From IMG/VR virus record IMGVR_UViG_3300021599_001431, positions 1 to 21,103 of that record: a stretch of DNA of 21,103 nt. One strand, given 5' to 3'. The notes beneath the pieces are model-generated. The model ran no database searches. It was given only the letters and a program-made list of their open reading frames with translations, and had not been told where the DNA came from. A program made the position numbers and the translations under genes. Source of the DNA: a virus. The first letter of the stretch is position 1; each line of letters begins with the position of its first letter. Positions 1,980 to 20,602 of the stretch are shown here, piece after piece.

Positions 1980-2150
1980 TTAACAACAAACACTTCCATC
2001 AACAGTTATGTAGACATAAGTAGTCCCCACAAATGTGTGAGTATATACACAACCTGTTGTTGAGTTTGGACAATCGGCTGTATCTCCGTTTATACCACAA
2101 GTAAGTAGTGTAACAAAGTCAATTTCATCACCATTAACAAGTCCTGTAAT
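1980..2150 (-). pseudogene. Out-of-frame C-terminal domain of the fibre gene starting at 2583
   Basis: Read from the codon at 2150, the minus strand gives 56 residues with no start codon of its own. It starts ITGLVNGDEIDFVTLLTCGI, then has NGDTADCPNSTTGCVY, THTFVGTTYVYITVDG and ends SVCC before TAA. Five cysteines, regular hydrophobic alternation and an end just ahead of the next gene all look like real protein. Reaching it from the upstream frame needs a +1 shift around bases 2150-2157 (GCCATTACAGG on the minus strand). A TAA lies in this frame just upstream at about 2154-2156, so the junction must fall within a few bases. It may be the remnant of an indel, a sequencing error, or the product of frameshifting. 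Confidence 0.6.
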
Positions 2151-2583
2151 GGCTTAAGGTAGGGGTTGAAGTCATCGTAGGAGTTTGCGTAGGAGTCAAA
2201 CCTATTGTTTGCGTAGGAGTGGAAGTGACCGTAGGCGTGGCTGATAATGTCGTTGTTGCGGTTGGAGTTAATCCAATAGTTGCGGTCGGAGATGGCGTAA
2301 CAGGAATCGTAGAGGTCGGAGTGGATGTAACGGTCGGGGTTACTGTTGATGTAGGCAAATTCTGAACCACAGCCAATATAAAATTTAAACATTCACCTTG
2401 TGATTGAACCTTGATGGTAAGTGTGTTATTTGGGACAAGGGTTGTGTAATAACCATAGGTAAAGGCTGAGGTAGGGATATTACTCTCAAATGGGGTTGCA
2501 TAGTTATCCACATCTGAATAAAGGTCAAAAGGTCCAACTGCTGAACCCACATCTGTTAATGTTATGATTACTGAATATGCCAT
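2134..2583 (-). CDS. Fibre-like protein with long Thr/Pro linker, frame broken near its C-terminus
   Basis: The open frame gives 149 residues. Residues 1-70 form a compact domain, beginning MAYSVIITLTDVGSAVGPFD and including LYSDVDNYATPFESNIP and an LTIKVQSQGECLNF strand. I recognise this 'TDVGS..GPFdLYSdvD....PFE' pattern as a common beta domain in uncultured-phage fibre proteins. Residues 76-143 are an almost pure Thr/Pro/Ser tract with periodic TIGLTPT units. The frame then ends abruptly in LSHYRTC. In the +1 frame a convincing Cys-bearing C-terminal domain continues from about 2150 to 1980 (separate entry), so the annotated stop is premature relative to the probable intact protein of about 200 residues. 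The ATG lies immediately after the preceding gene's stop. Function (virion surface fibre or decoration) is inferred from composition and context. Confidence 0.7.
   Translation of the reverse strand: MAYSVIITLTDVGSAVGPFDLYSDVDNYATPFESNIPTSAFTYGYYTTLVPNNTLTIKVQSQGECLNFILAVVQNLPTSTVTPTVTSTPTSTIPVTPSPTATIGLTPTATTTLSATPTVTSTPTQTIGLTPTQTPTMTSTPTLSHYRTC
2155..2358 (-). repeat. Thr/Pro-rich linker tract in the 2583 fibre gene
   Basis: This codes for about 68 residues made almost entirely of Thr, Pro, Ser, Val and Ala, with repeats of PTxT and two TIGLTPT units. The plus strand appears as runs of GGAGT-, GTAGGAGT- and GTCGG-type words. It ends within a few bases of the frame break. Confidence 0.85.
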
Positions 2584-2584
2584 A

Positions 2585-4111
2585 TTAAATACAAGTTAAT
2601 CCTCCACAGCTTGCTTGACCAACCCAAGGAACATTCATTTGGAAATTTGAAGATGGACCTGAGGTTAGGCTCAATAGTTTATATTTGTAAGTTGAAGCAC
2701 TATTACAATAATGGAAACCAATTGTTAAGGCTGCTGGTGTTTCAATTTTAAGAACACCTGTTGTAACAAGAGTACATGATGATTTATCATAAGCTTCAAC
2801 ATTATAGTATAAATACGATGGACTTGTTCTTGTCGGAGTCACTGAAGGTGTTACGGGAATTGTTGAGGTCGGACTAGGTGTTAAAGTAGGAGTTGCCGCT
2901 GGTGTTCTCGTAGGAGTCATGCTCGGAGTAACAGGAGGGGTTGAATAGTTATACTTTGTCTTAAGATAATTCAACACTTGGTTAAATTCAGATTGAGTTA
3001 ATAACTTATTATAACCAAGGAATTCAAACATGGAAATGTTATTTGTGAATGGTGTTCCACTAATACTATATCCAAAGTTAATCCAATCAGCTACCTCACC
3101 AATATAAGATGTCGTTCCAGATGTTCCAAGAGTATCATTCACCGAAGCTGTAAATCCTGTTGTAGTCAATCCTGAAGCGGCATATAAAGTATATCCCGTT
3201 GTGAATAGAAACTCTCTTCTACCAGGTTTACTTCTTGAAACAGATGTACTTACCCCACCATAGAATTGATAATCCCATATGTTGTTATTTAGGGTATAAC
3301 CTGAACCATTTTGAATATTGATTGACCATCCACCATCACTTCTTGAATTAACTTGTGAGACAAAGAAGAATGTCTTACCAGTAAATGTTGTAGCTGAACT
3401 TGGATGAGACAAGGTCATAAAATCAAGTGCTCCAAAGTTAACAGATTGACCTGTGTAAGATGACCCAAATGTATCGTTTGAAATAATCGTTGGTTGATTA
3501 ACCCCAACTGATTGAGTCAATGCTCCACCAATTAAACCATAGTTAGTCCAAGATGAACTACTTGCTCCCTCAGTTGATTTAAACCAATACTGAAGATTAC
3601 CAAGTGATGATGGGTCAAATGTTGGTTGTGTACTAGTTGGGGTTATTGTGTTGGTAGGACTCGGCGTGATATTAGGAGTAGTCGTAGGACTAGCAGTTAA
3701 AGTAACAGTTGGAGTCATCGTGGAGGTTGTTGTAACACTCGGAGTTGGCGTGTTCGTGTTTGTTGTGGTCGGAGTAACCTCAGGCGTTGCAGTTAAGGTC
3801 GTGGTTGTCGTAGGAGTTATCGTCGGTGTTGAAGTGATGGTATTGGTCGGAGTTACTGATGGAGTGATTTGTGGAGTTTCCGTTGGAGTCACAGAAGGAG
3901 TATTACTTGGAGTGGTTGTTACACTCGGGGTTGGGGTCATCGTCAAAGTTGGAGTAACACTCGGAGTAGGTGGCACAAGGGTAAACACAGCACTACCTGA
4001 GAATGTACAACCAGGGTTATATGCTGAAATATAATTGTCGTGAAATGGTCTCCACTCCCCAAGATATGGTGACCACCAAGTCTTTAAAAATACTCTCCTT
4101 TGTTGAGACAT
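2585..4111 (-). CDS. Multidomain surface protein: anchor, Thr/Pro linker, lectin-like domain, linker, Cys domain
   Basis: The frame is open from an ATG at 4153, but the ATG at 4111 is preferred. It lies two bases after the preceding stop (TAATTATG), whereas the longer form would overlap that gene by 40 bases. This gives 508 residues. Residues 1-46 are a short, Trp-rich anchor (MSQQRRVFLKTWWSPYLGEW). Residues 47-164 form a Thr/Pro linker of about 118 residues. Residues 169-389 form a laminin-G/concanavalin-like domain opening SSLGNLQYWFKSTEGAS and closing with the typical NQVLNYLKTKYNY helix. A second linker covers residues 391-430. The last 75 residues, with YYNVEAYDKSSC and a CGGLTCI tail, form a separate Cys-containing beta module. 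This is a probable virion surface protein that may bind glycans. Binding is inferred from the fold type only. Confidence 0.75.
   Translation of the reverse strand: MSQQRRVFLKTWWSPYLGEWRPFHDNYISAYNPGCTFSGSAVFTLVPPTPSVTPTLTMTPTPSVTTTPSNTPSVTPTETPQITPSVTPTNTITSTPTITPTTTTTLTATPEVTPTTTNTNTPTPSVTTTSTMTPTVTLTASPTTTPNITPSPTNTITPTSTQPTFDPSSLGNLQYWFKSTEGASSSSWTNYGLIGGALTQSVGVNQPTIISNDTFGSSYTGQSVNFGALDFMTLSHPSSATTFTGKTFFFVSQVNSRSDGGWSINIQNGSGYTLNNNIWDYQFYGGVSTSVSRSKPGRREFLFTTGYTLYAASGLTTTGFTASVNDTLGTSGTTSYIGEVADWINFGYSISGTPFTNNISMFEFLGYNKLLTQSEFNQVLNYLKTKYNYSTPPVTPSMTPTRTPAATPTLTPSPTSTIPVTPSVTPTRTSPSYLYYNVEAYDKSSCTLVTTGVLKIETPAALTIGFHYCNSASTYKYKLLSLTSGPSSNFQMNVPWVGQASCGGLTCI
2822..2941 (-). repeat. Second Thr/Pro linker of the 4111 gene
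   Basis: It codes for about 40 residues such as PVTPSMTPTRTPAATPTLTP, lying between the lectin-like domain and the C-terminal Cys domain. Confidence 0.85.
3620..3973 (-). repeat. Longest Thr/Pro linker of the window (about 118 residues)
   Basis: An almost uninterrupted Thr/Pro/Ser/Val tract between the N-terminal anchor and the lectin-like domain of the 4111 gene. Its low complexity leaves a long hydrophobic open frame on the opposite strand (3648-4034), which I regard as an artefact. Confidence 0.9.
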
Positions 4112-4113
4112 AA

Positions 4114-4407
4114 TTAGATATTCGCTGTTGCTCCTGAAACCACGAAGGAACAAGTGTTAATGTTTGATGGAAGAGCAAAAACCTCTTCTTTTTCTTGAGT
4201 TGTTAAACAATCAAGAATGAAATCTTTAATCAAAATACCATATCCAATGTTTTGTTTTTCACCTGTTTCCAAATCAAACTCACACATAACATCAGGAGCA
4301 TTCATATAAGTGGTTGTTCCACCAGATGGATAACCCATACAAGTATTGATTCTTGTGATTAAATTTTGAGCTTCTTGCTCATTAATAAAAATGATATAGT
4401 TTACCAT
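4114..4407 (-). CDS. Small hypothetical structural protein
   Basis: A 97-residue protein starting MVNYIIFINEQEAQNLITRI, with a TCMGYPSGGTTTY loop, a VMCEFDLETGEKQNIGYGIL segment and an acidic helix around TQEKEEVFALPSN. I do not recognise the family. It carries no Thr/Pro linker and no membrane segment. Its start sits inside ATGGTAA, where TAA would be the stop of the upstream gene if that gene kept its ancestral frame. This tight arrangement suggests translational coupling and that the small protein is part of the same structural set. It might be an adaptor or chaperone for the neighbouring surface proteins, but nothing in the sequence proves this. Confidence 0.65.
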   Translation of the reverse strand: MVNYIIFINEQEAQNLITRINTCMGYPSGGTTTYMNAPDVMCEFDLETGEKQNIGYGILIKDFILDCLTTQEKEEVFALPSNINTCSFVVSGATANI

Positions 4408-6076
4408 GTGTTATATTGATATTTTGTTTTAAGATAATTGATAACATTAGCGTGTTCTGTAATGCAGGTGCTCCGTCAACAACAGGTGTTCTATATTGAC
4501 CTCTATTCATTCTTGTAGAACCAGTACCTGCGGATTCCCAGTTTTGATAAAACCAATTGTATGTTGTTGCTGATAATAATCCAATTGAAAAATTACTTGC
4601 TGATGAAGTAACAGGTTTGTAGACAATATAAGAAGTATGATTTTGTATGTTGAGTGAGGAGGTTGTACCAGTCATAAAATCAGCACTATTCAAGAATTGA
4701 ACTGATGTACCTGTGAATGAACCTAAAGTGGAGTTAGTTTTTATAACAGGTTGGTTAGCTGCTGCTGTTTGTGTTGCTGAACCCCCTTGTCCACCATAGT
4801 TCGTCCAAGATGAAACTGTAGCGCCCGAATCGGCCATAAACCAATATTGTAGGTTCGTTACCCCCGATGGTGAAAATGCTGGTGGAGTTGAGCTCGGTGT
4901 CGGACTAGTCGTTACGGTAGGCGAGTTTGTTAAAGTTGGAGTTACTGTTGGAGAAACACTCGGAGTCGGAGTAGCTGTAACCTGAGGAGTTGCCGTCGGA
5001 GTCGGAACAGGTGATGCCCATTCATCATATCTCCATTTGTCTTTAAGATAAAGTTCAACCGCTTCTTGTTCAGCAGAAGATAGTTCATAGTTATAAACCA
5101 TCATTTCCGCTAACTCAATATTGGAATTCAGTGAATATAATTGTTGTGTCGTATTTGTTGTACAACCTATGTTAATCGCATTCCATCTTGGACTTACAGT
5201 TGTTCCTGTGAATAATATTGATGATGTTCCTGCTGATTGGTTCAATTCCCAACTACCGAAACCTGGATTAGCAGGTAAAACAACTTTTAACAAATACTTT
5301 CCATTGAGGTTTGTAGCTGAAAAAGGTGCTGGTATTGGAACTGTTTGAGCTGAGTTTTGTGGATAAATATTTGTATTACCGATGTTAGTGGCTATTGAAG
5401 CAAATTGTAATCTGTCTGCTATATCAGAGCCAGTTTGAACAAGTGTTCCATTCGTATTACCTGAATATAACTGATTTACAAAGGATGGTGTTCCTGCTGG
5501 TTGAGACCAAACCACAAAGAGCGTTGAACCAGTATGTGTTAAAGTTGGTCTATCAAAAGCAACCAACCCTTTTCTTAAAGCAGCTGTTGCATTTGGAGTG
5601 AATCTAATAATGTTTGGATTACCTGGTAATGATGTTGAAGCAGAATATGTTGGATATCTATCAGATGTTTGACCTGTTAAAGTCCAAGTCTCCGTACCTT
5701 TTGAGGTTAATTGAGAAATATAAGTTGTTCCACCCGACAATATCAAGTTCATGGTTGTGCTATCAGAAGCATCAAACCATAGACTTGGTTGAACAAATGG
5801 GAATGGAGTTGAAGATGGAGTTACAGAAGGTGTTAAAGTCGGTGAAGCTGTGATACTCGGAGTCGGTGTAACCTGAGCTGTTGCGGTCGGACTAGGTGTA
5901 ATAACAGGGACAACGGGCTCATTTCCTTTACCTGAAATATATTGACCTGTAAGGATTGCTGAACCCAAACCAGCTTTCATTGATAATGGTTTGATTAGTT
6001 CATTAACATCGGGTTTGTAAACTTTAACAAAGTTTGTTGCTGGTCTATATGAACGACCTTTCCATTGTAATCTCAT
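4382..6076 (-). CDS. Multidomain surface protein with two linkers and two lectin-like domains, second one truncated and frameshifted
   Basis: The open frame gives 564 residues. Residues 1-55 form a basic N-terminal anchor (MRLQWKGRSYRPATNFVKVY). Residues 59-91 are a Thr/Pro linker. Residues 94-352 form a laminin-G/concanavalin-like domain opening FVQPSLWFDASDS and closing EQEAVELYLKDKWRY. Residues 356-400 are a second linker. A second domain starts at about 405 with GVTNLQYWFMADSG, closely similar to the domain in the 4111 gene. That second domain is cut short after about 135 residues (TPVVDGAPALQ) and the frame runs into NTLMLSIILK..., which does not look native. The expected closing helix is present in another frame at 4463-4401 (separate entry). 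This is the first gene after the hairpin at 6094-6125. It is probably a virion surface protein. Confidence 0.7.
   Translation of the reverse strand: MRLQWKGRSYRPATNFVKVYKPDVNELIKPLSMKAGLGSAILTGQYISGKGNEPVVPVITPSPTATAQVTPTPSITASPTLTPSVTPSSTPFPFVQPSLWFDASDSTTMNLILSGGTTYISQLTSKGTETWTLTGQTSDRYPTYSASTSLPGNPNIIRFTPNATAALRKGLVAFDRPTLTHTGSTLFVVWSQPAGTPSFVNQLYSGNTNGTLVQTGSDIADRLQFASIATNIGNTNIYPQNSAQTVPIPAPFSATNLNGKYLLKVVLPANPGFGSWELNQSAGTSSILFTGTTVSPRWNAINIGCTTNTTQQLYSLNSNIELAEMMVYNYELSSAEQEAVELYLKDKWRYDEWASPVPTPTATPQVTATPTPSVSPTVTPTLTNSPTVTTSPTPSSTPPAFSPSGVTNLQYWFMADSGATVSSWTNYGGQGGSATQTAAANQPVIKTNSTLGSFTGTSVQFLNSADFMTGTTSSLNIQNHTSYIVYKPVTSSASNFSIGLLSATTYNWFYQNWESAGTGSTRMNRGQYRTPVVDGAPALQNTLMLSIILKQNINITHGKLYHFY
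4401..4463 (-). pseudogene. Out-of-frame C-terminal helix of the 6076 gene's second lectin-like domain
   Basis: Read from 4463, the minus strand gives ITEHANVINYLKTKYQYNTW and then TAA at 4403-4401. This matches the closing helix of the paralogous domain in the 4111 gene (NQVLNYLKTKYNYSTPP). Compared with that paralogue, roughly 60-80 residues are missing between TPVVDGAPALQ and ITEHANV. This indicates an out-of-frame internal deletion or a misassembly. The stop of this frame overlaps the ATG of the next gene (ATGGTAA), which supports it as the ancestral frame. Confidence 0.65.
4877..5011 (-). repeat. Second Thr/Pro linker of the 6076 gene
   Basis: It codes for about 45 residues such as TPTATPQVTATPTPSVSPTV, joining the two lectin-like domains. 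Confidence 0.85.
5804..5902 (-). repeat. First Thr/Pro linker of the 6076 gene
   Basis: It codes for about 33 residues such as ITPSPTATAQVTPTPSITAS, between the N-terminal anchor and the first lectin-like domain. Confidence 0.85.
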
Positions 6077-6093
6077 CTATAAAATGTTGGCTT

Positions 6094-6125
6094 AAAATAA
6101 GGGGGGAATTACCCCCCCTTTATTT
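6094..6125 (-). terminator. Strong GC hairpin, probable intrinsic terminator after the capsid block
   Basis: On the minus strand an AAATAAAGGGGGGG arm is followed by a TAATT loop and a CCCCCCTTATTTT arm. This makes a stem with six or seven G:C pairs flanked by A:T pairs, and the 3' arm ends in T-rich sequence. It lies a few bases after the stop of the 6673 gene and before the surface-protein genes. It would be expected to end or attenuate the highly expressed capsid/tail-tube transcript. The symmetry means it could act in either direction. Confidence 0.75.
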
Positions 6126-6130
6126 ATATA

Positions 6131-6673
6131 TTAGGATTGAACTGTGAATCCAGTAGCGATAGCCGCAAGAGTTGTTGTTACATCAATCTCACGAGCTGGG
6201 TTTGGTTCACCACCAGTCATCGTAACAGAAATACCGTTCAGGTCGTTGTACGCCTGTCCTGTCTGCTGAGAAGCTGTAGTTACCATTGCTCCGTTGCTCC
6301 AAGCAACAGCCCAATAACGCTCATTATTATCTTTGATGATAATGTAAAGTTCATTTTGTTTAACCAAATCAAAGAATAAATTTCTAAGCGTTTGGTTAAG
6401 TTTCGGTAAGGATATTACCACTGCAGGTTGGAAGGTTACAGATTGAGCAACATCGTTAACCAAAATGTCTTCAGTGAATGAAGAAGATTGTTTAACAAGT
6501 TCAAAGTGATACCATGTACCTTGACCACTAAATCCAGTGATTTCATCATTTGCTGATGTAGTATAACCAGAAATAGTGTGAGCACTATCACCCAAAATCC
6601 ATAATTCTTTGATACCTCCAATAGATGCATTTCTACAATCTAAAGTATATCCTTGGTCAATATAACACGACAT
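6131..6673 (-). CDS. Probable major tail tube protein
   Basis: A 180-residue protein beginning MSCYIDQGYTLDCRNASIGG, with KELWILGDS following. This 'dC+ns.GGik.l.i' opening is, in my recollection, common to a conserved small structural protein of Bacteroidetes phages that I take to be the tail tube subunit. The centre has a QNELYIIIKDNNERYWAVAW beta hairpin, and the C-terminal part has TGQAYNDLNGISVTMTGGEP. The 'G.ay.D.nG.tvT.tg.E' ending is typical of tube-type beta-sandwich proteins, which stack as hexamers around the DNA channel. It comes straight after the major capsid gene and before the hairpin terminator, consistent with a high-copy product. A capsid decoration protein is the main alternative. 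Confidence 0.6.
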   Translation of the reverse strand: MSCYIDQGYTLDCRNASIGGIKELWILGDSAHTISGYTTSANDEITGFSGQGTWYHFELVKQSSSFTEDILVNDVAQSVTFQPAVVISLPKLNQTLRNLFFDLVKQNELYIIIKDNNERYWAVAWSNGAMVTTASQQTGQAYNDLNGISVTMTGGEPNPAREIDVTTTLAAIATGFTVQS

Positions 6674-6699
6674 AGTTTATATTATTTAAATTTGGTTTA

Positions 6700-7653
6700 T
6701 TAGTTTTTCGCAAGGACAAATGAATCTACAGAGAATACTCCAAGACCATATACCATACGAGCGATGATTTTAACGATATCTTCGTAAGGGTCATACATAC
6801 CTTTGATTTCAATACCACCGTTATCAGTAGCGTTCATACCTACCATGAAGTAAGAAGCTGGACCAGCAACAACTGCTGATTGACCGTCAAGACCTTGAGT
6901 TGGGATTACTCTAACATTTGTGCCAGGTAACATCACTGTCCACTCTTGACCTTGTGCTGCAGAAGCATCGTCAAATGAGAACAAGTTCACATAAGAAGAG
7001 TTTCTCATTGAAGCTACAAGACCTCTGTAATCGCTGTAAGAACAGAACATAACTAAGTCATTTCTGTGTAATACATTCGCAGGGATTGATTCGTAGTAAG
7101 TAGAGAACACATCAAGACCATTTGTTGAAGTCGCTGCTGTGTAAGCTAATTGAGTAGCTCCGTTACCTGAAGTAACAAGTGCTAAAACTCCGTCAAAGCA
7201 CTGTGAGTTGTACTCAGTAGCACCAGTCGCAGTTGTATTTCTCCATAATTGTTTTTCTATAGAATCCGCTATGCGATTACTGATATCAGTAATTATCAAC
7301 TCTTCAAATGGAATTGACTCTTGGAAATTTGAGTTAGATAATCTCTGACTCAAGAAGTAATCATAAAGGTCATAAGCACAAAGTGATTGGTTAACCTTCT
7401 TATTACAAGTTGCAATTGTTACTTGTGAAATTGTTGTATCACCAGTAGCGTTAAATCCACATGAACCATCTTGGAAGATAACATTGTTTGTTAAGAATCC
7501 TACCTGTTCTGTACCTTTAATATTTGGTCTGATTGTAGCGTACTTTGGTAAAGTTTCTCCAAGGATACTCTTAATAAGCATATCAGTTGCGTTTTCGTCA
7601 ACCCATACACTCAAGTTAGAGAGGTTATATGAAAATTTTTCATTCTTTTTCAT
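6700..7653 (-). CDS. Major capsid protein (HK97-fold type, inferred)
   Basis: A 317-residue protein starting MKKNEKFSYNLSNLSVWVDE, with WVDENATDMLIKSILGETLP and later TISQVTIATCNKKVNQSLCA, IADSIEKQLWRN, NVLHRNDLVMFCSYSDYRGL and a closing GIEIKGMYDPYEDIVKIIAR. The order (N-arm, long helix with 'i...ie..l...', peripheral domain, then a strand-rich end) resembles coat proteins of Bacteroidetes siphoviruses. The context is decisive: it lies directly after the protease and a scaffold-like protein and before the probable tail tube. The leader is the A-rich AAACAAACAAATAAATTTTA without a Shine-Dalgarno site, as in highly expressed Bacteroidetes genes. No catalytic or signal sequence is visible. Confidence 0.85.
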   Translation of the reverse strand: MKKNEKFSYNLSNLSVWVDENATDMLIKSILGETLPKYATIRPNIKGTEQVGFLTNNVIFQDGSCGFNATGDTTISQVTIATCNKKVNQSLCAYDLYDYFLSQRLSNSNFQESIPFEELIITDISNRIADSIEKQLWRNTTATGATEYNSQCFDGVLALVTSGNGATQLAYTAATSTNGLDVFSTYYESIPANVLHRNDLVMFCSYSDYRGLVASMRNSSYVNLFSFDDASAAQGQEWTVMLPGTNVRVIPTQGLDGQSAVVAGPASYFMVGMNATDNGGIEIKGMYDPYEDIVKIIARMVYGLGVFSVDSFVLAKN

Positions 7654-7679
7654 AATAAAATTTATTTGTTTGTTTTAGT

Positions 7680-8585: not shown

Positions 8586-8590
8586 GAGTA

Positions 8591-11206: not shown

Positions 11207-11209
11207 ATA

Positions 11210-14200
11210 TTAAAATTTACTTAAGTCATCCAATCTCTTGGATATCATTTGTTCGTTTGTTATATCCGAACCTAATACATAAGCTCGGATTGGGGTTTGT
11301 TTTTGTTTAGCCAAGGCTTCAATAATTCTTGAATCATCAAAGTTATTCATCACAAGTGGACGACCTCCACCTGATTGATTTATACTTGATAACAAACCTT
11401 GGAAATTCATTGTGGATTGTCTGTTGATTATTGCTTCATTTCCTTCTGCAATAACCCCCATTTGAGCCAGTGGTATTCCACCATTCTCGTGTGAAGGTCC
11501 TCTTAATAACATACCACCCTGAGCTTTGAGTAAACCACCCTTTCTCATCGCTTGAGCGTTTGATATTTGGTCTTGGATAATACCAATTTGTGCTGCTGTA
11601 ACACCTGCGATAACTGCTGTCTGAATAGCCCCAAGAATAGGGTTAGCTGCTATGAATGGGTTTGTCCAAAGTGCCGTAATCGCTTGAGCAGCGTTAGCGA
11701 TGGATTGTACAAGTGAAAATTGAAGTGCGGAAATTCTACCTCTCTTCTCAATCTCTTTTCTTTTTTCTTCATACTCAGCTTGGATTTCAAGTCGTTTGTC
11801 GGCTGCTGTCTTTGAATCACCCACAACTTGTGTTAAGGCTTTTTGTTCAGCAACTTTAAGTGATTCCAAATCTGTTCTAACTCTTTCTTGAGTTACAGAT
11901 GAAATCATATTTAAACTTGTGGAGAATTGTTGAAATACAGCTTCAAGAGTCTTTAATGTTTTTTCAGCTTCTGTTCTTTTGGATTTTTCAGTTTCATCAA
12001 AAACCTCTTTTTCTTTTTTCTTAAAAAGAATATATGCTTCTATAAAATTTTCTTCACTAACATATCTTAATTTATCATTCTTTTTAATCAACATTTCTTT
12101 GAACTTAGCAAGACCTCCCTCTTCTTTCAATACCTTGTCCCTAAAGTCTTTGTCTTCTTGCTCAGCTTGTGTCCTCAAACCTAAAAATTCTTTTCTTAAA
12201 GTTTCAAAGTTTTTAACAACTATTCCACCTAAGGATTTCCCTAAGTCCGTTGTGTTAGCTAAATCCTCGGCTAAGTTATCAAATTCAAGATTCAATGCAA
12301 GAACACCTTGTTCTGCCTTAACTGTAGCTCCCAATAATTTTTGGAATTCAGCAATGATTAAATCAACACCAGTTTGAATTTCCTTGGGGTCAATTATTTT
12401 TAAATCTAACTCACCTTTATCAGCGAATAATTTTATTGCATCTTGAACTGCCTTTATCTGACCTCTAATTTCTTCTACCTGTGTAGCAGGTAAACCTTTG
12501 AGTGCTTTTTGGGTTTCCAATGCTGCTAACTTTTGATTTAATAAATCTTCGGTAACTGGTTTAAATAAACCCTTTCTAATTTCCTGATATGTTTCATCAG
12601 CGTTCTTTTTTGCTAATACTGGGTCAAATTGTAACTTAACTATTTTTCTTGTAGTATCGTCAAGCTCTAATTTATATTCACCAGTAGCTGCCGCTAAATC
12701 TCCAAATATTTTTAGAACATTAAACCACTCTCCATACCCCGCATCGGTTGCATTGATATTTTCATCCCAAGCAACATTCAAATCTTTTAACTGTCCAATT
12801 ACTTGTTTGAATCCAGGTCTTGTTTCAATTAGTGTGTAGATATCTTTATAACCTTGTGTTACTGCAACTAAAGCATCTCTTTGTTCTTGAGTAGTTACTG
12901 TAAAATTCTTTAATCCATCAGTTAAAATTTTATCAAATTTTTTGATGTCTTTTTCAGGTTGTGTAAATGCCTTTTCTAAGTTTGCTCTGAAAAGCAAGAA
13001 AAAGTTTCCAAAAGCATCAATTGTTGGGGGAATAACCTCATTAACTTGTTTATCAAAACTTGTTGTGAAATCAACCAATTCTTGAGCTGCCGCTATTCTT
13101 GCTTCCTTAACCTTTTTAATAGCTTCAATAACAGGTATATCAACTTTGATATTCTCTAATTTTTTGATTGTTTCCTCATAAGTCGCAAATGATTTCGTTA
13201 ACAAATCTAATTGTTCTTTGAAACTGATAGATGATGTAACCCCTTTTTTGTAGGCTGCGTTTAATTCCTCTTGAGTTTTAGCTGCGTTTTGTTTTGCGGT
13301 AGTTAGTTTCTTTTCAGTTTCCACTTGAGTGGTAAGAGTTTGTTCAAGAGGTTTCAATTGTTTGTAAACCTCATCTGTTTGAATATAAACATCCCCCAAT
13401 GATTTTCTCCATCTCTCGTTCTCCTCTGTTACTGCTTTAATCTTAGCTTGTTGATTCTTTAAACCTGTCTCAAAGTCAGCCAATACGCCTGCTGAAATTT
13501 GACCACCACTCTTTATCACATTACCCAATTTTTCATACCAAGTAACATTGTCCAAAATTGAACTCTGTTCAATCTCCAAAATCTTGATTGAGTTTTCAGC
13601 TATCTTTTGTGTGATTAACTTAGCCTGAGCTTCAAGTTCATACTGTTTGATTTTAAGTTTGATAAATTCAATACCCTGTTTGTTTAACTTGTTCTCTTTA
13701 TCAATGAACGCATTAAAACCAGGATATTGTTTAACAAGTTTTTCAATCTCTCTTCTTTGTAAATCCCTTTGACTATTGAACTCAGTAAGAATAACTAATG
13801 AATTCTTCAAGTTGTTAGCTTCATCAGAATTAACCTTATTAAGTTCGGCTTGAACATTTACTTGTTCAGCAGTAGAATCACTTAGAGCTACATAAGCAGC
13901 GACAAGAGCTCCCACTACTGCAAGGATTGCTCCAATTGGGTTAGCGGCTAAGGTTGCCCATAATACTCTTGTGGCTGTGGTCGCTGCGTTAGCTGCCGCT
14001 GCTGAGGCGTATGTTGCGATGTTGGCCGCAACCGTTCTAACGGCAACAACTCCTTCAGCAGCCGACCTGGCAGCAAGTGCGATGGTAAGAACAGCCTGAG
14101 CCTTTGCAGCTGCTTCAGCTACGGCTTCTGATTCTGTTCCAAATAAGGCTATGGCAGCTTGTGCTCCCGCAAAAGAAGCTGTGATACCTTCCCCCACTTT

Positions 14201-14437
14201 GGCGAAGGCTCCAACTCTTTTTTCAAGGTCTTGTCCTTTAACTGATTCACCGAAATCTTCTAATACACTTTTTGCATTCTTAACATCTGTGGATAACCTC
14301 TTGAAACTTTCTGAACCAATGTTTAAACCTTTTAACTCTTCTTCAGCAGATTTAATTGCAGCTTCAAGCTCCTTGATGTTTGTGATGTTCTGTTTAACAC
14401 CACCAATGGTGAGGGTAAGTGCGATATTTTTAGCCAT
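11210..14437 (-). CDS. Tail tape measure protein
   Basis: A 1075-residue protein, the longest in the window. Residues 15-75 are a helical coiled-coil opening (KELEAAIKSAEEELKGLNIG). Residues 85-186 are Ala-rich and hydrophobic and include ANPIGAILAVVGALVAAYVA. The middle (about 230-900) is long, charged and heptad-like. Residues about 902-963 form a second hydrophobic stretch (NPILGAIQTAVIAGVTAAQI). The end has RGPSHENGGIPLAQ, NEAIINRQS and LLSSINQSGGGRPL, the 'GpSH..GGi...EaIINr...lls.iN..GGG' signature I know from Bacteroidetes tape measures. Tape measures set tail length and exit into the host envelope. As a rule of thumb for extended helix (about 0.15 nm per residue), this size implies a long non-contractile tail of roughly 150 nm. 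It is followed, not preceded, by the capsid genes. Confidence 0.9.
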   Translation of the reverse strand: MAKNIALTLTIGGVKQNITNIKELEAAIKSAEEELKGLNIGSESFKRLSTDVKNAKSVLEDFGESVKGQDLEKRVGAFAKVGEGITASFAGAQAAIALFGTESEAVAEAAAKAQAVLTIALAARSAAEGVVAVRTVAANIATYASAAAANAATTATRVLWATLAANPIGAILAVVGALVAAYVALSDSTAEQVNVQAELNKVNSDEANNLKNSLVILTEFNSQRDLQRREIEKLVKQYPGFNAFIDKENKLNKQGIEFIKLKIKQYELEAQAKLITQKIAENSIKILEIEQSSILDNVTWYEKLGNVIKSGGQISAGVLADFETGLKNQQAKIKAVTEENERWRKSLGDVYIQTDEVYKQLKPLEQTLTTQVETEKKLTTAKQNAAKTQEELNAAYKKGVTSSISFKEQLDLLTKSFATYEETIKKLENIKVDIPVIEAIKKVKEARIAAAQELVDFTTSFDKQVNEVIPPTIDAFGNFFLLFRANLEKAFTQPEKDIKKFDKILTDGLKNFTVTTQEQRDALVAVTQGYKDIYTLIETRPGFKQVIGQLKDLNVAWDENINATDAGYGEWFNVLKIFGDLAAATGEYKLELDDTTRKIVKLQFDPVLAKKNADETYQEIRKGLFKPVTEDLLNQKLAALETQKALKGLPATQVEEIRGQIKAVQDAIKLFADKGELDLKIIDPKEIQTGVDLIIAEFQKLLGATVKAEQGVLALNLEFDNLAEDLANTTDLGKSLGGIVVKNFETLRKEFLGLRTQAEQEDKDFRDKVLKEEGGLAKFKEMLIKKNDKLRYVSEENFIEAYILFKKKEKEVFDETEKSKRTEAEKTLKTLEAVFQQFSTSLNMISSVTQERVRTDLESLKVAEQKALTQVVGDSKTAADKRLEIQAEYEEKRKEIEKRGRISALQFSLVQSIANAAQAITALWTNPFIAANPILGAIQTAVIAGVTAAQIGIIQDQISNAQAMRKGGLLKAQGGMLLRGPSHENGGIPLAQMGVIAEGNEAIINRQSTMNFQGLLSSINQSGGGRPLVMNNFDDSRIIEALAKQKQTPIRAYVLGSDITNEQMISKRLDDLSKF

Positions 14438-14464
14438 ACTGATAAATAGTTATTTCGGTTTTTA

Positions 14465-16804
14465 TTAGCATTGATTTTCAGTTACCTGACCCAAGTTGTT
14501 AATACCAACAAATGTTGTCCCTGTGGTTGTCTGTCTGAAGAATGTACCCGTTGTTAAAGCACTTGTTCCAAGTGAGTCGTAGTAAACTGATGAACCATCC
14601 ACAACAGGGTTTGTTGAACTGTATAAGTTAAATATCGTAGCAGCGTTAGCACATACCTCGGATTGATTTGTTGAAACAAAACCAGTGATTGAAAATGTTG
14701 CAGCAGTTGATGGGTAAGCTTCATTTGGTGTTACAGTATAACTCGGGGCTGGTGGAACAACTTTGTTATAAGGTGCAACAAGTTTAATTAAAGATACCTC
14801 AGTTGCCTTCCAATTCACAAGGTCAGCTTCATTAACTCTCTCAATATTGAAAAGGGAATCCTTCAAAAAGATTTTATTTGTTAAATTGATTTGGGATATC
14901 TGTATTGGTTCAAAGATGAATTTTCCCGTTACCCTTCTCGTCTCAGGAGAATATAGATTGGTGAAGTAATCCCCATACCATAATTGGAATATGTTATTAG
15001 CAGTATACTGTTGAATAACATTATTCTCAGGGTCATAAAAGTCCGTTGTTTTATCAAAGTTTAAATCTGATATTAACTCGGGGTCTTGTTTGTCCAATGA
15101 ACTAAGATGGTTAACACATGGATAGGTATTCCAAGCAACTGGTGTTCCCCCACTTGTGATATACCAAGTCTTCTGTGTTGTCTTTGTTTCATCAGCATAG
15201 AAGTATCTATTTCCACACCAAAAGAATATATGGTTTTTATTTGAATATGGTATTTCCTTACCTGTTGCAACATCATACTTGTAGACCATTGGAATAACCA
15301 GGTTAGTTGACCCCGTCATCACATCAGATGGATAAGGTCTGAATGGGAATTCAAAGTCAACTGTCCCTGTTAAGATGTCTGAAGTGGCAACGAACCTCTT
15401 CGTCCCAAAAGGTAATTCGTATTCATCTTCATAAATCTTACCCAAATGTTCATCTTCTGCTGGTAGATATTTGAAATTATATTCTTTTTGTAATTGAAAA
15501 TTAACTGGCTCAATTTTAAATGGCTCGTTTTTATCAAGGATTTGTGACCAGTCTTTTGTCTCAGCAAAGTTTTGTGAGTAATACCAGTTGAGTGGCTCCA
15601 TCCTAAGTTTCTTTGTCCCCTCAGTTTGAACAACTACAAGGTTAAACATCTTCACAATTGCTTTAACAAAGTCAAGACAACTAATCTCGGGGAATTGTAA
15701 TTTCATTTCAACAATGTTATTTGCAACAAAGTTTGGTGAGTTATACAAATCCCATCTTGCCCCATATCCCACCCAATCAGTAGGTCCAACCCACAGACCA
15801 GCATTTCTGTTTGATGAGCTTGAAGTATTAAATCTTATGAATATACCAATCCACTCACCCACATTAAGGTTAAGATTGTTAATGAATATTCTTTGGTTAT
15901 TTGAATTAGAATAGTTAAATGCTAACAAACCATCTGTTGTTCCCCCAACTGCTGTACGCTTTGTTGGGTCAGACAAGTCTTGTGGTCTTGAAGCTTTGAA
16001 TATTGAAATACCATAATATGTTGAAACATAGTTATTGGAATATCTTTGATTGACCTTCCCCTTAAACTCAAAAGAATATTGTCCTGAATAAGGGATTTGG
16101 TAGGCTGAATAAGTCTCATTAAAATTAAATGAAGGGTCATAACCATCTGTTGATGATATTCTACCCATCTTAATTTGTTGTGTTACTCCATTTGAATATG
16201 AAAACTCTTGTGCTAATGGTGTTGCATTTCCATATACTCTAAAGATATTTTGGTTTGTTCTTGCAGATGCTGTCTCAACCCCAAGTCTACCATTCATTGC
16301 TAAGTCAATGTAGATAGCTCTAAAATACTCTGATTCAAAAAAGTTTGATTCAACCTCATATCCACTCGTTTCAAAAATCTTCTCAATGATTGTTTTAACA
16401 CGCATGGCTGGTTTAAAATAAGTTGGGGGAATACTACTACCCGAAAAATCAATACCCTTTATCTCAGATAGAATATAAACCTCATATTCAATTTGGTCTT
16501 TTACTCTTGTTACAGAGTTAAGTCTAAGGAAACCCTTGAAGATATCTGTTCCTCTGTATTGAACAACACATTTTCTTCTAGTAAGAGGGTCATAACCGAT
16601 TGCATTTACCTCATAGAAGTGCTCAAAGAAATCATTATTATTCTTTGTTCCTGGTATGGGGAATGTCTTGGAATAAGGTGAGCGTCTAGCTTCAATATCT
16701 GTTATGTCCGTTTCTTGGATAATAACATTGATGGATAATTGTTCAAATAAATCTAACTCAATCCATTGGTTATTATCACCTAATACTAAAAGGGTTGTAT
16801 CCAT
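14465..16804 (-). CDS. Tail/baseplate protein with C-terminal display domain
   Basis: A 779-residue protein. Near the N-terminus it has ETDITDIEARRSPYSKTFPI followed by PGTKNNNDFF and FKGFLRLNSVTRVKDQIEYE. The 'R.s.ySKTf.iPgT..N..fF...fev' motif is characteristic of a conserved Bacteroidetes phage tail protein found with tape measure genes, presumably a tail-tip or baseplate component. The middle contains beta-rich inserts (residues about 215-350) that look like a carbohydrate-binding or jelly-roll module. Residues 683-779 are a separate C-terminal domain with CANAATIFNLYSSTN and GTFFRQTTTGTTFVG, ending TENQC. I recognise this as a small add-on domain on uncultured-phage fibre proteins. Its ATG overlaps the upstream stop (TAATG). 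The precise role (distal tail versus tail-associated) cannot be decided from sequence alone. Confidence 0.7.
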   Translation of the reverse strand: MDTTLLVLGDNNQWIELDLFEQLSINVIIQETDITDIEARRSPYSKTFPIPGTKNNNDFFEHFYEVNAIGYDPLTRRKCVVQYRGTDIFKGFLRLNSVTRVKDQIEYEVYILSEIKGIDFSGSSIPPTYFKPAMRVKTIIEKIFETSGYEVESNFFESEYFRAIYIDLAMNGRLGVETASARTNQNIFRVYGNATPLAQEFSYSNGVTQQIKMGRISSTDGYDPSFNFNETYSAYQIPYSGQYSFEFKGKVNQRYSNNYVSTYYGISIFKASRPQDLSDPTKRTAVGGTTDGLLAFNYSNSNNQRIFINNLNLNVGEWIGIFIRFNTSSSSNRNAGLWVGPTDWVGYGARWDLYNSPNFVANNIVEMKLQFPEISCLDFVKAIVKMFNLVVVQTEGTKKLRMEPLNWYYSQNFAETKDWSQILDKNEPFKIEPVNFQLQKEYNFKYLPAEDEHLGKIYEDEYELPFGTKRFVATSDILTGTVDFEFPFRPYPSDVMTGSTNLVIPMVYKYDVATGKEIPYSNKNHIFFWCGNRYFYADETKTTQKTWYITSGGTPVAWNTYPCVNHLSSLDKQDPELISDLNFDKTTDFYDPENNVIQQYTANNIFQLWYGDYFTNLYSPETRRVTGKFIFEPIQISQINLTNKIFLKDSLFNIERVNEADLVNWKATEVSLIKLVAPYNKVVPPAPSYTVTPNEAYPSTAATFSITGFVSTNQSEVCANAATIFNLYSSTNPVVDGSSVYYDSLGTSALTTGTFFRQTTTGTTFVGINNLGQVTENQC

Positions 16805-17568
16805 TAGTTATTCAATAGTTTTATGTTATTTGAGTATGAATAAGTCAATTCCATATTGACCATTGACTTGTTACCTTTTGTCTTTCTAACGAATTCAGCA
16901 TTCACAATGTTGATTGGGAATAATGTTCCATCAGTTTGGATTAGGTAAGCATCGTTTGTTGTGTATAACTCTTCAAGCCAAACCATCATTGGTTGTGATA
17001 TGAAACCTGAGTTTACAACATGAGTCTCAGCAATGTCTGTATTAAAGTCAGTTGTTCCTCTTGAATAGTTTGTCTTGATTGGATTTGATGAACCCCAAGC
17101 TACATTCCACTGACCATATACTTGTCTATCAATTGATAAACCTTCAGCTCTTGCTCTCTCAAACAAGAAGTAGTCATAAACACCATATCTATTCTTGAAC
17201 ATAATTTGGTCGTTAAAGAATTGATTACAAGGAGGGACAACATTGAATTGGAATATCTCAGATACAGCTGAATAAGTCACACAAGGAGCTGTTCCCCCAC
17301 TTGGTAGAATTGTAACAGGTTGAACTGATGGTTTAATCTGTGATGGTTTTTGTGGGTCTACAGGACAAGGGTAATCTGCCACACACTCATTACAATTGAT
17401 GTAGTAATCTGCTGTAACATAATTTCCACCTGAACCATCCCCACCCAATGCATAGATTTGGAAACATTCACCAGCAATGAATACCTGGCACAATTGTGTT
17501 ACAATAACAACATGCTGTAATGGTATATGTTCCAAGACTTGTTGCTTGTTCATACTGAGTATTACCAT
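16804..17568 (-). CDS. C-terminal part of a split tail/baseplate protein
   Basis: The open frame gives 254 residues, but the first 30 (MVILSMNKQQVLEH...) are the shadow of the upstream gene's frame and are probably not native. Recognisable protein starts at IAGECFQIYALGGDGSGG. The C-terminal half (FQFNVVPPCNQFFNDQIMFK, then NRYGVYDYFLFERA) matches, as I remember it, the second half of a Bacteroidetes phage tail protein whose first half is encoded by 18877-17468. Joining the two requires a +1 shift at 17479, giving about 690 residues with a smooth ...IVPGI/IAGECF... seam. It may be expressed by frameshifting, by re-initiation at the ATGs at 17568 or 17553, or the break may be a sequence error. 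Its stop overlaps the ATG of the next tail gene. Confidence 0.65.
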   Translation of the reverse strand: MVILSMNKQQVLEHIPLQHVVIVTQLCQVFIAGECFQIYALGGDGSGGNYVTADYYINCNECVADYPCPVDPQKPSQIKPSVQPVTILPSGGTAPCVTYSAVSEIFQFNVVPPCNQFFNDQIMFKNRYGVYDYFLFERARAEGLSIDRQVYGQWNVAWGSSNPIKTNYSRGTTDFNTDIAETHVVNSGFISQPMMVWLEELYTTNDAYLIQTDGTLFPINIVNAEFVRKTKGNKSMVNMELTYSYSNNIKLLNN

Positions 17569-18877
17569 TACAATCTGTGTATTTGAACCAACCTGTATCT
17601 GTTATGTTTAAGGTTGTTCCACTGGTACATGAACCAATTGGAGTTGAAGAAGGAGTAATACTTGGGGTTGCGCTTGGAGTAGTTACAGGTCCACCACAAC
17701 TACCCAAATATGTTTGAGTGAAATTAGGTTGAGCAGTTATTGAACAAGCACATAGATAAAGAGTTTCACCAGGTCCCAAATAAACATTTGAATCTACCCC
17801 AAAACAATCAACATAAGAAACCAATACTGTAAACCCTACCTCAGAAATCAATTCATAACTACCACAAGCACAAGCTGGTGATGAACTTGGAGTTTGTGTT
17901 TGAGTCTGACTCGGGGTTGGTTGAGGACTACCATTTGGTGTTGCAGTCATCGTTGGTGTGATGCTCGGAGTGGGAGTCGGCGTAACCGCAATTGGAGTTG
18001 CTCCCCCAAATAATTGAACAGTATAATAACTTGTTCCACCAGGAAAATTATAGATGTTTAGTGGACCTACACCGATGTTTAAAATGTTATAATCTGACCC
18101 ACCTGTGAATGTGTTATTCACATAGTCTTGTGTACAAGCTGTTGCTGGTCCCCCACCATTTGATTGGATATTAGAATACTTGTCTGTTCTAATTAGAAAA
18201 CCATTAACATCATAGAATTTATATTCAGAGTAATATGGTTCAGACTTATAAGGTCCACCAAGTTCATAGTTGGTAAATGATAAAGTATAATACTCATCAA
18301 CAGAGATATCTCTAATTCTTGGTGAGTTGGTTAGGAATAAACCTGTTGTGGTATATGGGAATGCTGGTTGTGGGTTTCCTGATAATGTGAATTGACCAGT
18401 ATCCCAAGTGGCTTTGGTTGCATTTCTGTTAACCCCCATCGTTCCAAGAAATGACTTATAAGTTGATGATTGAACAGCAGGAAAACCTACTTGGTCTCCA
18501 ATACCTGTGAACCCTGTTAATGGAGCAACAAATGAATCAGCATACTCCTCACCCACAAGGATATAATAATCAACAACATCATTACCATAAGGTCTTGAGA
18601 ATGGTGAGGTTTGATGGGTAAAGATTGGGGTTTGGTCGTGATAAGCAACAGGATAGTTTTGTAGATATGAATCTAATACTCTTGAAATATCAATGATACC
18701 AAGACCATAAGGGTTAGGTGTAGATTTACCTTCAAATACTTTATAGTTTTGAACATACACCTCATAGACATATCTAAACTTTGGTTGTGATGTTGTGTCT
18801 GCTGATACTGTGAAATACAACGAATCAGATTTTGATGGTTGGAAATCAGCAGGATTTTTAATGATAACTGTGCTCAT
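17468..18877 (-). CDS. N-terminal part of a split tail/baseplate protein with linker and two Cys domains
   Basis: The open frame gives 469 residues. Residues 1-290 are a conserved-looking tail domain with KFRYVYEVYVQNYKVFEGKS and TPNPYGLGIIDISRVLDSYL ('y+.vydVyV....v...k..pNP.g.giiDisrvl.sYl'), known to me from Bacteroidetes phages. Residues 298-334 are a Thr/Pro linker. Residues 335-395 and 416-460 are two copies of a small Cys domain: CGSYELISEVGF...YVDCFG...CACS and CTSGTTLNITDTGW...YTDCNG...CCYC. A short second linker lies between them. The frame ends at TIVPGIHCW. Since the 17568 frame carries what looks like the missing second half, I believe one protein has been interrupted, with extra display modules inserted in its middle. 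Confidence 0.7.
   Translation of the reverse strand: MSTVIIKNPADFQPSKSDSLYFTVSADTTSQPKFRYVYEVYVQNYKVFEGKSTPNPYGLGIIDISRVLDSYLQNYPVAYHDQTPIFTHQTSPFSRPYGNDVVDYYILVGEEYADSFVAPLTGFTGIGDQVGFPAVQSSTYKSFLGTMGVNRNATKATWDTGQFTLSGNPQPAFPYTTTGLFLTNSPRIRDISVDEYYTLSFTNYELGGPYKSEPYYSEYKFYDVNGFLIRTDKYSNIQSNGGGPATACTQDYVNNTFTGGSDYNILNIGVGPLNIYNFPGGTSYYTVQLFGGATPIAVTPTPTPSITPTMTATPNGSPQPTPSQTQTQTPSSSPACACGSYELISEVGFTVLVSYVDCFGVDSNVYLGPGETLYLCACSITAQPNFTQTYLGSCGGPVTTPSATPSITPSSTPIGSCTSGTTLNITDTGWFKYTDCNGNTQYEQATSLGTYTITACCYCNTIVPGIHCW
17636..17689 (-). repeat. Short Thr/Pro linker between two Cys domains
   Basis: It codes for about 18 residues (PVTTPSATPSITPSSTPI) separating the two similar Cys domains of the 18877 gene. 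Confidence 0.8.
17876..17986 (-). repeat. Thr/Pro/Gln linker in the 18877 gene
   Basis: It codes for about 37 residues such as VTPTPTPSITPTMTATPNGS, and is richer in Gln than the other tracts in its second half. Confidence 0.85.
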
Positions 18878-18881
18878 CTTA

Positions 18882-19421
18882 TTATAATAAATTTACTAAT
18901 CCGTTTTCTAAAAGACCTTGGAAATAATTTGCCATTGCTTGTTCCCCCAAATCTTCTAATTGTTTGATTACTTTATTTTCGGCTTTCTGTAAAAAGTTTG
19001 TTCCTTTAAAACCTTTTTCTTTTATGGAACGAGCTATTAGGAATGCTCTTTGTTTAACTGTCCCTGTTCCAAATCTACCTCTTGCATCTCTAAAGAATAC
19101 AGGTTTAACTTTAACCCATGCTTCAATAGCTGCTAGTGGTGGATATTTTGTTGATGGTTTTCTACCTTGGTCAATTATCTGTGGTAAAAAAAATGGTTCA
19201 ACTGTTGGGAATGATACAATCAATTGCATATTTCCATCAACATCTTCATCCCACTCAACACTTAAATCTCTAAGTAGTGTACCAGTTGCAACTGAACCCC
19301 TTCTATTGAATCCTGTCTTTTGTGCCCCATAATACCCTTCAGGTTTATAAGGTGTCTGCAATTCAGTCCTAATTGCTGAATAGAGCAGGTCTCTCATTAA
19401 AGTCATTGCAGCTTCATCCAT
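18882..19421 (-). CDS. HK97-gp10-like neck / minor tail protein
   Basis: A 179-residue protein. The key region is PQIIDQGRKPSTKYPPLAAI followed by EAWVKVKPV. This matches the 'v..G+kps..pp..ai..Wv..k' signature of HK97-gp10-like proteins, and RGRFGTGTVKQRAFLIARSI with a KGTNFLQKA segment follows, as is usual in these families. The C-terminal helix (ENKVIKQLEDLGEQAMANYF) is also typical. Such proteins sit at the head-tail interface and help join the tail. The ATG follows the upstream stop by two bases (TAAAGATG), so coupling is likely. Its neighbour upstream is a terminator-like protein, as expected for a neck module, although connector and portal genes lie far downstream here. Confidence 0.75.
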   Translation of the reverse strand: MDEAAMTLMRDLLYSAIRTELQTPYKPEGYYGAQKTGFNRRGSVATGTLLRDLSVEWDEDVDGNMQLIVSFPTVEPFFLPQIIDQGRKPSTKYPPLAAIEAWVKVKPVFFRDARGRFGTGTVKQRAFLIARSIKEKGFKGTNFLQKAENKVIKQLEDLGEQAMANYFQGLLENGLVNLL

Positions 19422-19423
19422 CT

Positions 19424-20602
19424 TTAATACTTGTTATTAAGATAATTAAACATTTGGGACAACTGACTATCATTCAACTTTTTATCAAAATAGAATTGTT
19501 CGGTATTACCATCTAGTCCTCCGTCAAACATCAATCTATACTGCTGGTCTGTAAGTGTGTAAAGTGATGCTGATGCTGTTGTTCCTGAAGAAATCAAGGA
19601 GTTATTTTCCCATACTTCCAAATAAGCATCACCACTTTGTTCGTATGCTCTAACAGCAATTGATGTCCATCCTGTTGTTGATAAATCAAATCCAACTTGT
19701 AATGAACCTCCCCCATTTAATCTAGCATTAGCATAGAATACATTTGGTGGGTTATTAAGGTCTCTAACAAAGAAGAATCTTGTCCCTGTAGGGAATCCTG
19801 TTCCATCGTATGCTTCTACAAAACAACCCCCTCTTTGTGGTCCAACATTATCATCATCAATAAATCCAAACCAAGTAAATCCGTTATGATGTGCTGTATA
19901 TGTTCCTAATGGATTTTCTAATGGTGCTGCATTTTCAGTAGTCATACCTGATACTGCCAAATAACCAATTGGATTATACAAAGGTCCACTTAGAGTAGTA
20001 GCTGTGAATGCAACAGAAGCAATTTTATCTACTGCTTGTGATACTGTTCCAAAATTAGTTGTTAGGGTTGAAGCGTCAGTAAAGTCAATCCACCACAATG
20101 CGTTGAATGAAGCAGGGTTTACTGATGGAGGTGTACTTGTTTGAGTCGGGGTTGGTTGAGGAGTTGAACCAACAGATGCGGTTGGAGTGCTTGTCTGAGT
20201 TAAAGTTGGGGTTGCGCTTGGTGTTCTTGTAGTTGTTGGCGTTACTTGAGGAGTTGTTTGTGGTGTGCTTGTTACTGTCGGGGTTACCGATGGAGTTACA
20301 GCAATCCACTGCTCACAAGCATTGATATCTTCCATAACCACAAGGTTTAGGTCAAGAGCCACACCAGCAACATAGTCATTGAATCTCTCCAAGATTGTTG
20401 ATAACTGATAGGTTGTTGTATTTTGGTCATAAGAGACAGACAGAGGTACAACGAATAGATATGGGTAAGTTACAGTTTGACCTGAAACATTTTTTCCAAA
20501 GTCAACCAAGTTACCATAACCAAATGAGTTTAGGCAACAATAGTTTTGTTGGAATTGCTCCAACTTGTCCAAGACTTTGTGGTAGGTTAAATAAAGCTCC
20601 AT
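19424..20602 (-). CDS. Tail-terminator-like protein fused to linker and lectin-like domain
   Basis: A 392-residue protein. Residues 1-95 (YCCLNSFGYGNLVDFGKNVS, TYPYLFVVPLSVSYDQNTT, YQLSTILERFNDYVAG, LDLNLVVMEDI) follow the pattern 'l.sfgyGdl.d.......yPylfv.p.s......ty.l.i...d' that I know from small tail-completion/terminator proteins of Bacteroidetes phages. These are normally about 130-180 residues and cap the tail at the neck. Residues 102-160 are a Thr/Pro linker. Residues 165-392 form a laminin-G/concanavalin-like domain (WWIDFTDASTLTTNFG...) ending in the NDSQLSQMFNYLNNKY helix, related to those of the 4111 and 6076 genes. The fusion would place a lectin-like domain at the neck. It lies 33 bases after the chaperone-like reading frame. 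Confidence 0.65.
   Translation of the reverse strand: MELYLTYHKVLDKLEQFQQNYCCLNSFGYGNLVDFGKNVSGQTVTYPYLFVVPLSVSYDQNTTTYQLSTILERFNDYVAGVALDLNLVVMEDINACEQWIAVTPSVTPTVTSTPQTTPQVTPTTTRTPSATPTLTQTSTPTASVGSTPQPTPTQTSTPPSVNPASFNALWWIDFTDASTLTTNFGTVSQAVDKIASVAFTATTLSGPLYNPIGYLAVSGMTTENAAPLENPLGTYTAHHNGFTWFGFIDDDNVGPQRGGCFVEAYDGTGFPTGTRFFFVRDLNNPPNVFYANARLNGGGSLQVGFDLSTTGWTSIAVRAYEQSGDAYLEVWENNSLISSGTTASASLYTLTDQQYRLMFDGGLDGNTEQFYFDKKLNDSQLSQMFNYLNNKY
20123..20299 (-). repeat. Thr/Pro linker in the terminator-like gene
   Basis: It codes for about 59 residues such as VTPSVTPTVTSTPQTTPQVT, between the neck domain and the lectin-like domain. Confidence 0.85.

What the first reader, a model, noticed from the sequence alone, without database searches (positions are those of the whole stretch)
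2134..20602. Thr/Pro linkers shared by five virion genes: a common display architecture
Eight Thr/Pro-rich tracts (18 to about 118 residues) occur in five genes (20602, 18877, 6076, 4111, 2583). In each, an N-terminal part that looks like a virion or neck/tail component is followed by a linker and then a lectin-like, Cys-type or other beta domain. Some genes carry two linker-domain units in series. Linkers of one composition spread over so many virion proteins suggest a plug-in system for exposing variable binding domains on stalks, perhaps for host glycans, mucus or particle attachment. The linkers and modular layout are seen in the sequence; the function is inferred.
Basis: partly seen in the sequence, partly recalled or inferred. 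Interest (0 to 1): 0.75.

Follow-up and report, generated by a model that had tools for sequence, protein, structure and literature searches.

The report
Swappable virion binding domains on stalks
A small uncultured phage carries lectin-like and other beta domains on Thr/Pro stalks in five genes of its head and tail block, and related phages have swapped those domains at the stalks while leaving the anchors unchanged, probably to change what the particle sticks to.

Summary
In detail: eight Thr/Pro tracts lie in five genes of a tailed-phage structural block, far beyond chance. The 'plug-in' idea is largely supported by 90 related loci. Anchors stay conserved while displayed domains change: 100%-identical A anchors carry unrelated domains, and in all 13 pairs inspected DNA identity first breaks inside a linker. 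One domain family occurs both on a tail-completion-like anchor and on a gene between capsid and portal. Linkers alternate strictly (Thr/Ser every second residue). The A display has a ConA-like lectin fold; others are Gly-rich or beta-propeller.

Corrections: the window carries five deletions of about 150-234 nt, probably assembly errors. Its 18877 and 17568 genes are one 755-aa protein in intact relatives, with the linker block internal. The C, D and E anchors are only 42-75 aa and cannot be named. A linker-free outgroup shows the modules are additions.

Decoration of virions with carbohydrate-binding modules at several sites is known (936 lactococcal phages), so this is a variant: long disordered stalks, many unrelated domains, up to 31% of a 28-kb genome, linkers as exchange points. 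Ligand, host and virion location are untested.

The parts
19424..20602 (-). Gene A (20602): tail-completion-like anchor, T/P linker, ConA-like lectin domain
   Evidence: the anchor lacks about 49 aa here because of a deletion at ~20391-20400
20108..20296 (-). linker of gene A (63 aa, 59% T+P)
   Evidence: the same region in relative L042 is predicted disordered, pLDDT about 35
19427..20107 (-). lectin-like display domain of gene A
17468..18877 (-). Gene B, N-terminal half with two linkers and two small Cys domains; one gene with 16804-17568 in intact relatives
17876..17998 (-). linker 1 of gene B
17612..17689 (-). linker 2 of gene B (short)
16804..17568 (-). C-terminal half of gene B, separated here by a 194-nt deletion at ~17472-17478; includes the end of a third Cys-rich module
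4382..6076 (-). Gene C (6076): 52-aa anchor and two linker-LamG units; 3' end frameshifted at ~4461
5804..5917 (-). linker 1 of gene C
4856..5014 (-). linker 2 of gene C
2585..4111 (-). Gene D (4111): 42-aa anchor, 121-aa linker, LamG-type domain, second linker, 74-aa domain
3620..3982 (-). linker 1 of gene D (121 aa, 65% T+P)
2816..2944 (-). linker 2 of gene D
2134..2583 (-). Gene E (2583): 75-aa N-terminal domain and linker; display truncated by a ~167-nt deletion at ~2150
   Evidence: intact relatives are 252-344 aa
2158..2355 (-). linker of gene E
6700..7653 (-). capsid-like protein used to fetch relatives; role rests on gene order (PHROG match is to a family of unknown function)
431..1513 (-). 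portal protein
11210..14437 (-). tape measure protein

Best explanation
These are virion-block proteins that display adhesion domains. Conserved or short anchor segments are joined by extended, disordered Thr/Pro stalks to interchangeable beta-domains (ConA/LamG-like lectins, small Cys domains, Gly-rich domains, beta-propellers). In B the stalked block is inserted between two halves of a tail protein. Within populations the stalks are the joints at which displayed domains are replaced, added or lost, so a phage can change its surface binding while the virion scaffold stays the same. Shown by sequence: modular layout, conserved anchors, swaps, breakpoints in linkers, the predicted lectin fold of the A display, absence of the modules in an outgroup. 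Inferred: that A to E sit in the particle, that the stalks project outward, that the domains bind host-surface glycans (or mucus or particles), and that they serve instead of a separate fibre or spike gene.
For: Swaps: 93 of 202 A pairs with anchors at least 60% identical have no detectable similarity in the display, including the 100%-identical anchors of L042 and L059/L060; the LamG form (window, L042, L043) and the small-domain form (L059, L060) each occur in separate assemblies. Breakpoints: in all 13 pairs inspected for A, C, D and E the first break of DNA identity lies inside a linker; in E a whole linker-domain unit is inserted with both edges in linker DNA. Over all pairs 74 of 92 breaks fall in linkers against about 27 expected by length (pairs are not independent). 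Sharing between anchors: HDHSFN domain on E and A (61% aa identity, L007 E vs L058 A), LamG on C and D (37% aa) and more remotely on A. Gly_rich_2 and DUF5122 displays. Linkers: 91% of P-P spacings are even vs 44% in shuffles; Thr+Ser make up 76% of the other register; codons are scrambled. In the six linker-bearing contigs read whole, such tracts occur only in the structural block. Outgroup L040/G005: A is 161 aa and B 464 aa without linkers, with separate genes of 576 aa and 386 aa (three PKD domains). In the circular 28.2-kb genome G006/G007 the linker genes take 31% and no separate fibre gene was seen.
Against: No proteomics or imaging, so virion location rests on gene position. The anchors of C, D and E are 42-75 aa and unidentified; the model of B is poor (pLDDT 43). 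A ConA-like fold does not prove sugar binding. Linkers evolve quickly, so alignments tend to end there even without recombination. F/16804 could carry the true receptor-binding part.
Confidence: 0.68

Rival explanations
1. Ordinary receptor-binding diversity: the linkers are neutral spacers, the domains vary by usual phage mosaicism, and the linker has no special role as joint or stalk.
For: Domain shuffling in receptor-binding and neck proteins is common in phages (PMC10684548). Alignments would end in fast-evolving linkers anyway.
Against: The same linker grammar recurs in five unrelated genes and three lineages with strict alternation; whole linker-domain units are inserted within linkers; the anchors do not look like fibre stems.
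Confidence: 0.2
2. The tracts are mucin-like O-glycosylated coats whose main job is the sugar they carry (shielding, hydration, protection); the domains are secondary.
For: Thr/Ser on every second residue and few charged residues; tracts up to 310 residues.
Against: No glycosyltransferase family was found among the non-structural genes scanned (a partial scan); nearly every intact linker leads to or joins a folded domain, and those domains are being exchanged.
Confidence: 0.1
3. The swaps are chimeras of metagenome assembly at low-complexity DNA.
For: The window and contigs with neighbouring sample numbers have read-length-sized deletions, and L047 lost its A linker in that way.
Against: Anchor-display combinations recur in separate assemblies, the DNA up to the joint differs by about 4% between the two forms, as expected of distinct strains, and frames stay open over the joins.
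Confidence: 0.07

Closest known systems
Carbohydrate-binding-module decorations of 936 lactococcal siphophages (evolved Dit, MTP/TpeX, neck passage structure; PMC6669499)
   Same: Binding modules attached to several different virion parts in one phage group, including internal insertion into a structural protein (evolved Dit); combinations vary between phages.
   Different: There the modules sit on tail tube, neck and baseplate, partly by frameshift, and add to a dedicated receptor-binding protein; here long Thr/Pro stalks join many unrelated domain families to a tail-completion-like anchor, an internal site of a tail protein and small genes by the portal, and no separate fibre gene was seen.
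Ig-like capsid and tail decorations (T4 Hoc, lambda gpV; modular gut-phage adhesins, PMC13370021)
   Same: Accessory beta domains thought to hold phages to surfaces; modular BACON/PKD/Ig proteins in phages predicted to infect Bacteroidota.
   Different: Displayed folds here are ConA/LamG-like, Cys, Gly-rich and propeller, on disordered stalks rather than chains of Ig domains.
PilC minor pilin of Streptococcus sanguinis (7oa7, 7oa8)
   Same: A domain of the same fold in a surface structure; weak sequence match (profile E 3.6e-5) and first Foldseek hit.
   Different: A bacterial pilin; the relation is at the level of the domain only.
PT-box linkers of cellulases and other multidomain carbohydrate-active enzymes (from own knowledge)
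   Same: Pro/Thr-rich flexible linker between a core and a binding module.
   Different: Secreted enzymes; here in phage structural-block proteins, with strict two-residue alternation and exchange of the joined domain.
Domain mosaicism of phage receptor-binding and neck proteins (PMC10684548)
   Same: Recent swapping of domains between otherwise conserved phage proteins.
   Different: That survey's main text does not mention linkers; here one linker type recurs as the joint in five genes.

Membership tests
ConA-like/LamG lectin fold (display of A; by sequence also C and D) | beta-sandwich jelly-roll matching solved ConA-like domains | tested here: met
   A model residues 208-441: VIA-align Z 17-18, rmsd 2.7-3.1 over 188-203 residues; Foldseek rank 1 PilC, E 1.5e-8. 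The C/D LamG profile reaches A at 2.7e-4. No Pfam hit; C and D were not modelled.
ConA-like/LamG lectin fold (display of A; by sequence also C and D) | carbohydrate binding | not testable with these tools
   fold alone does not show ligand binding
Tail completion protein (anchor of A) | fold and size of tail completion proteins, next to an HK97-gp10-like gene | tested here: inconclusive
   the ~145-aa anchor matches BFVD A0A6J5N663 'Tail completion protein' (TMt 0.78, rmsd 3.4, 19% identity) and other 149-166-aa proteins; the neighbour gene has HK97-gp10_like at E 0.006, below the curated cut-off
936-type CBM-decorated virions | binding domains attached to several virion proteins of one phage | tested here: inconclusive
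   five genes in the structural block carry such domains; presence in particles and binding not shown
936-type CBM-decorated virions | homology of the modules to BppA-type CBMs on Dit, MTP or NPS | not tested
   no comparison with BppA was run; displays matched ConA-like, Gly_rich_2 and DUF5122
Diversity-generating retroelement variable proteins | reverse transcriptase in the genome | tested here: not met
   no RVT_1 in 14 related records; the control rings in 4 genomes. Most records are fragments, but G006/G007 are full circles

The most novel reading that the evidence does not exclude
A whole clade of roughly 28-32-kb phages has given up a dedicated receptor-binding fibre and spread attachment over several virion proteins, using one codon-scrambled Thr/Pro linker grammar both as stalk and as the joint at which binding domains are exchanged between anchors of head and tail.
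Probability: 0.3. Interest if true: 0.8.

Novelty: new variant of a known kind. Interest (0 to 1): 0.6.

Why it matters
Phage host range is usually sought in fibres and spikes. If attachment is spread over stalked, exchangeable domains on otherwise conserved head and tail genes, host prediction from a fibre gene would miss it, and these natural joints show where phage structural proteins tolerate added domains. The pairs with the same anchor and different displays are a ready-made natural experiment on what each domain binds.

Tried and rejected
DGR: no reverse transcriptase. Bacterial-genome relatives of the capsid gene: none. Cultured phages: capsid and A gave no match; portal and 16804 gave only distant ones, the latter to Nonlabens phages P12024S/L. 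Pfam and NCBIfam on the window's linker genes: nothing significant. Slippage or phase variation in linkers: codons are scrambled and only 15 of 177 linkers hold an exact internal repeat of 18 nt or more. Programmed frameshift joining 18877 and 17568: rejected, relatives have one open frame and the window a 194-nt deletion. 'Linker-less' A in L047/L065 (one contig): an assembly-type deletion, since the lectin continues in another frame. B structure: model too poor to search. VIA-align rows for the A model cover residues 208-441 only, so the anchor was tested only through BFVD. Searches failed on my coordinates. My first shuffle test used too low a threshold; one search replaces it. Literature searches found no description of Thr/Pro-linked display in phages, which is weak evidence because the library is partial.

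Full report
What is in the window. The window is a whole 21,103-base virus record, read on the - strand: 20758, A/20602, 19421 (whose homologue is HK97-gp10-like), B/18877+17568, 16804 (F), tape measure 14437, a protease fusion 11206, 8585, capsid-like 7653, 6673, C/6076, 4407, D/4111, E/2583, 1966, portal 1513, 431. Portal and tape measure have PHROG matches; the capsid role of 7653 rests on gene order.

The window's frames are damaged. Against relatives 98-99% identical the window lacks about 148 nt (A), 194 nt (B), 234 nt (16804), 184 nt (C) and 167 nt (E). L029 lacks a similar stretch of its capsid gene and L047 the linker of A. I take these as assembly errors, which is not proven, and used intact relatives below. 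In L042 and L043 B is one 755-aa frame.

Relatives. Three scans of IMG/VR gave 90 loci, some from the same contig. The closest cultured phage is the distant Nonlabens phage P12024S, a flavobacterial phage with no such tracts in the 27.8 kb examined. Lineage I (window, G001, G003) has A, B, C, D, E. Lineage II (G006 and G007, two rotations of one 28.2-kb circle) has two A genes (570 and 1450 aa), B with its C-terminal half as a separate gene, and a C-like anchor next to F; linker genes are 31% of the genome. The likeness of that relocated anchor to C rests on a short motif. Lineage III (G004, G012) has A, a split B, C and D. The outgroup G005/L040 has A (161 aa) and B (464 aa) without linkers and keeps a 576-aa gene and a 386-aa gene with three PKD domains. 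In these contigs such tracts occur only in the structural block; besides A to E, short ones end an 83-aa gene beside C and lie near the end of the outgroup's F protein.

Linkers. Over some 170 distinct linkers the length is 17 to 310 aa (median 49), with 32% Thr, 23% Pro and 13% Ser. P-P spacing is even in 91% (shuffled 44%); one register holds Pro and assorted residues, the other 58% Thr and 18% Ser. Codons are evened out (CCG is 22% of Pro codons in linkers, 4% elsewhere in the same genes), so the protein pattern is kept while DNA repeats are broken up. This argues that the tracts are translated and kept at the protein level.

Domains and swaps. Inter-linker segments form many unrelated clusters per anchor. 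A genes with 100% identical anchors and unrelated displays exist; DNA identity runs through the anchor into the linker, stops, and resumes just past the stop codon, and in E a linker-domain unit is gained inside the linker. Over all pairs, 74 of 92 breaks lie in linkers, about 27 expected by length; pairs are not independent, and most of the breaks placed in the A anchor come from the window's own deletion. HDHSFN domains are shared by A and E, and LamG-type domains by C, D and more remotely A. B shows an internal block that is present or absent between alignable halves.

Structure. The A model (from L042) has a folded anchor (pLDDT mostly 70-80), a linker at about 35 and a lectin domain mostly at 80-93. 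The lectin domain matches the jelly-roll of many ConA-like binding domains: PilC first by Foldseek and, by VIA-align, the jelly-roll part of clostridial binding regions at Z 17-18. This is a widespread fold class and implies no toxin. The anchor matches a protein annotated as tail completion and many stand-alone phage proteins of 149-166 aa. B could not be modelled.

Verdict. Modular, swapped display on Thr/Pro stalks is well supported by sequence; position in the virion, ligand and host are inference. Decoration at several sites is known from 936 phages, and domain shuffling is common in phages, so I file this as a new variant of a known kind.

Noticed in passing
L030, L031, L032, L034, L036 (L031:356-609, L030:642-887, L036:8120-8371): Group I intron inside the capsid gene of several relatives (Rfam RF00028 above gathering score in L030, L031, L036); absent from the window and most relatives.
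   Followed up: partly
window 20391, 17475, 16459, 4461, 2150: Five deletions of about 148-234 nt against near-identical relatives; contigs with neighbouring sample numbers show the same, one inside the capsid gene (L029), so gene calls from this assembly series may be unreliable.
   Followed up: yes
window 8591-11206: 871-aa fusion with a head-protease-like part and a polynucleotide-kinase/HAD-like segment (PHROG matches at residues 583-705); some relatives match only residues 1-602.
   Followed up: no
L097 with L098 (G006) and L099 with L100 (G007): Two contigs are rotations of one 28.2-kb circle; A is duplicated, with a linker stretch of about 310 residues and DUF5122 beta-propellers.
   Followed up: partly
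all linkers, e.g. window 3620-3982: Pro codon CCG is about five times commoner in linkers than elsewhere in the same genes, and Thr codons are evened out.
   Followed up: partly
L105:5953-7683 (-) and L105:7909-9069 (-): The outgroup without linkers has a 576-aa gene of unknown family and a 386-aa gene with three PKD domains, possible dedicated attachment genes.
   Followed up: partly
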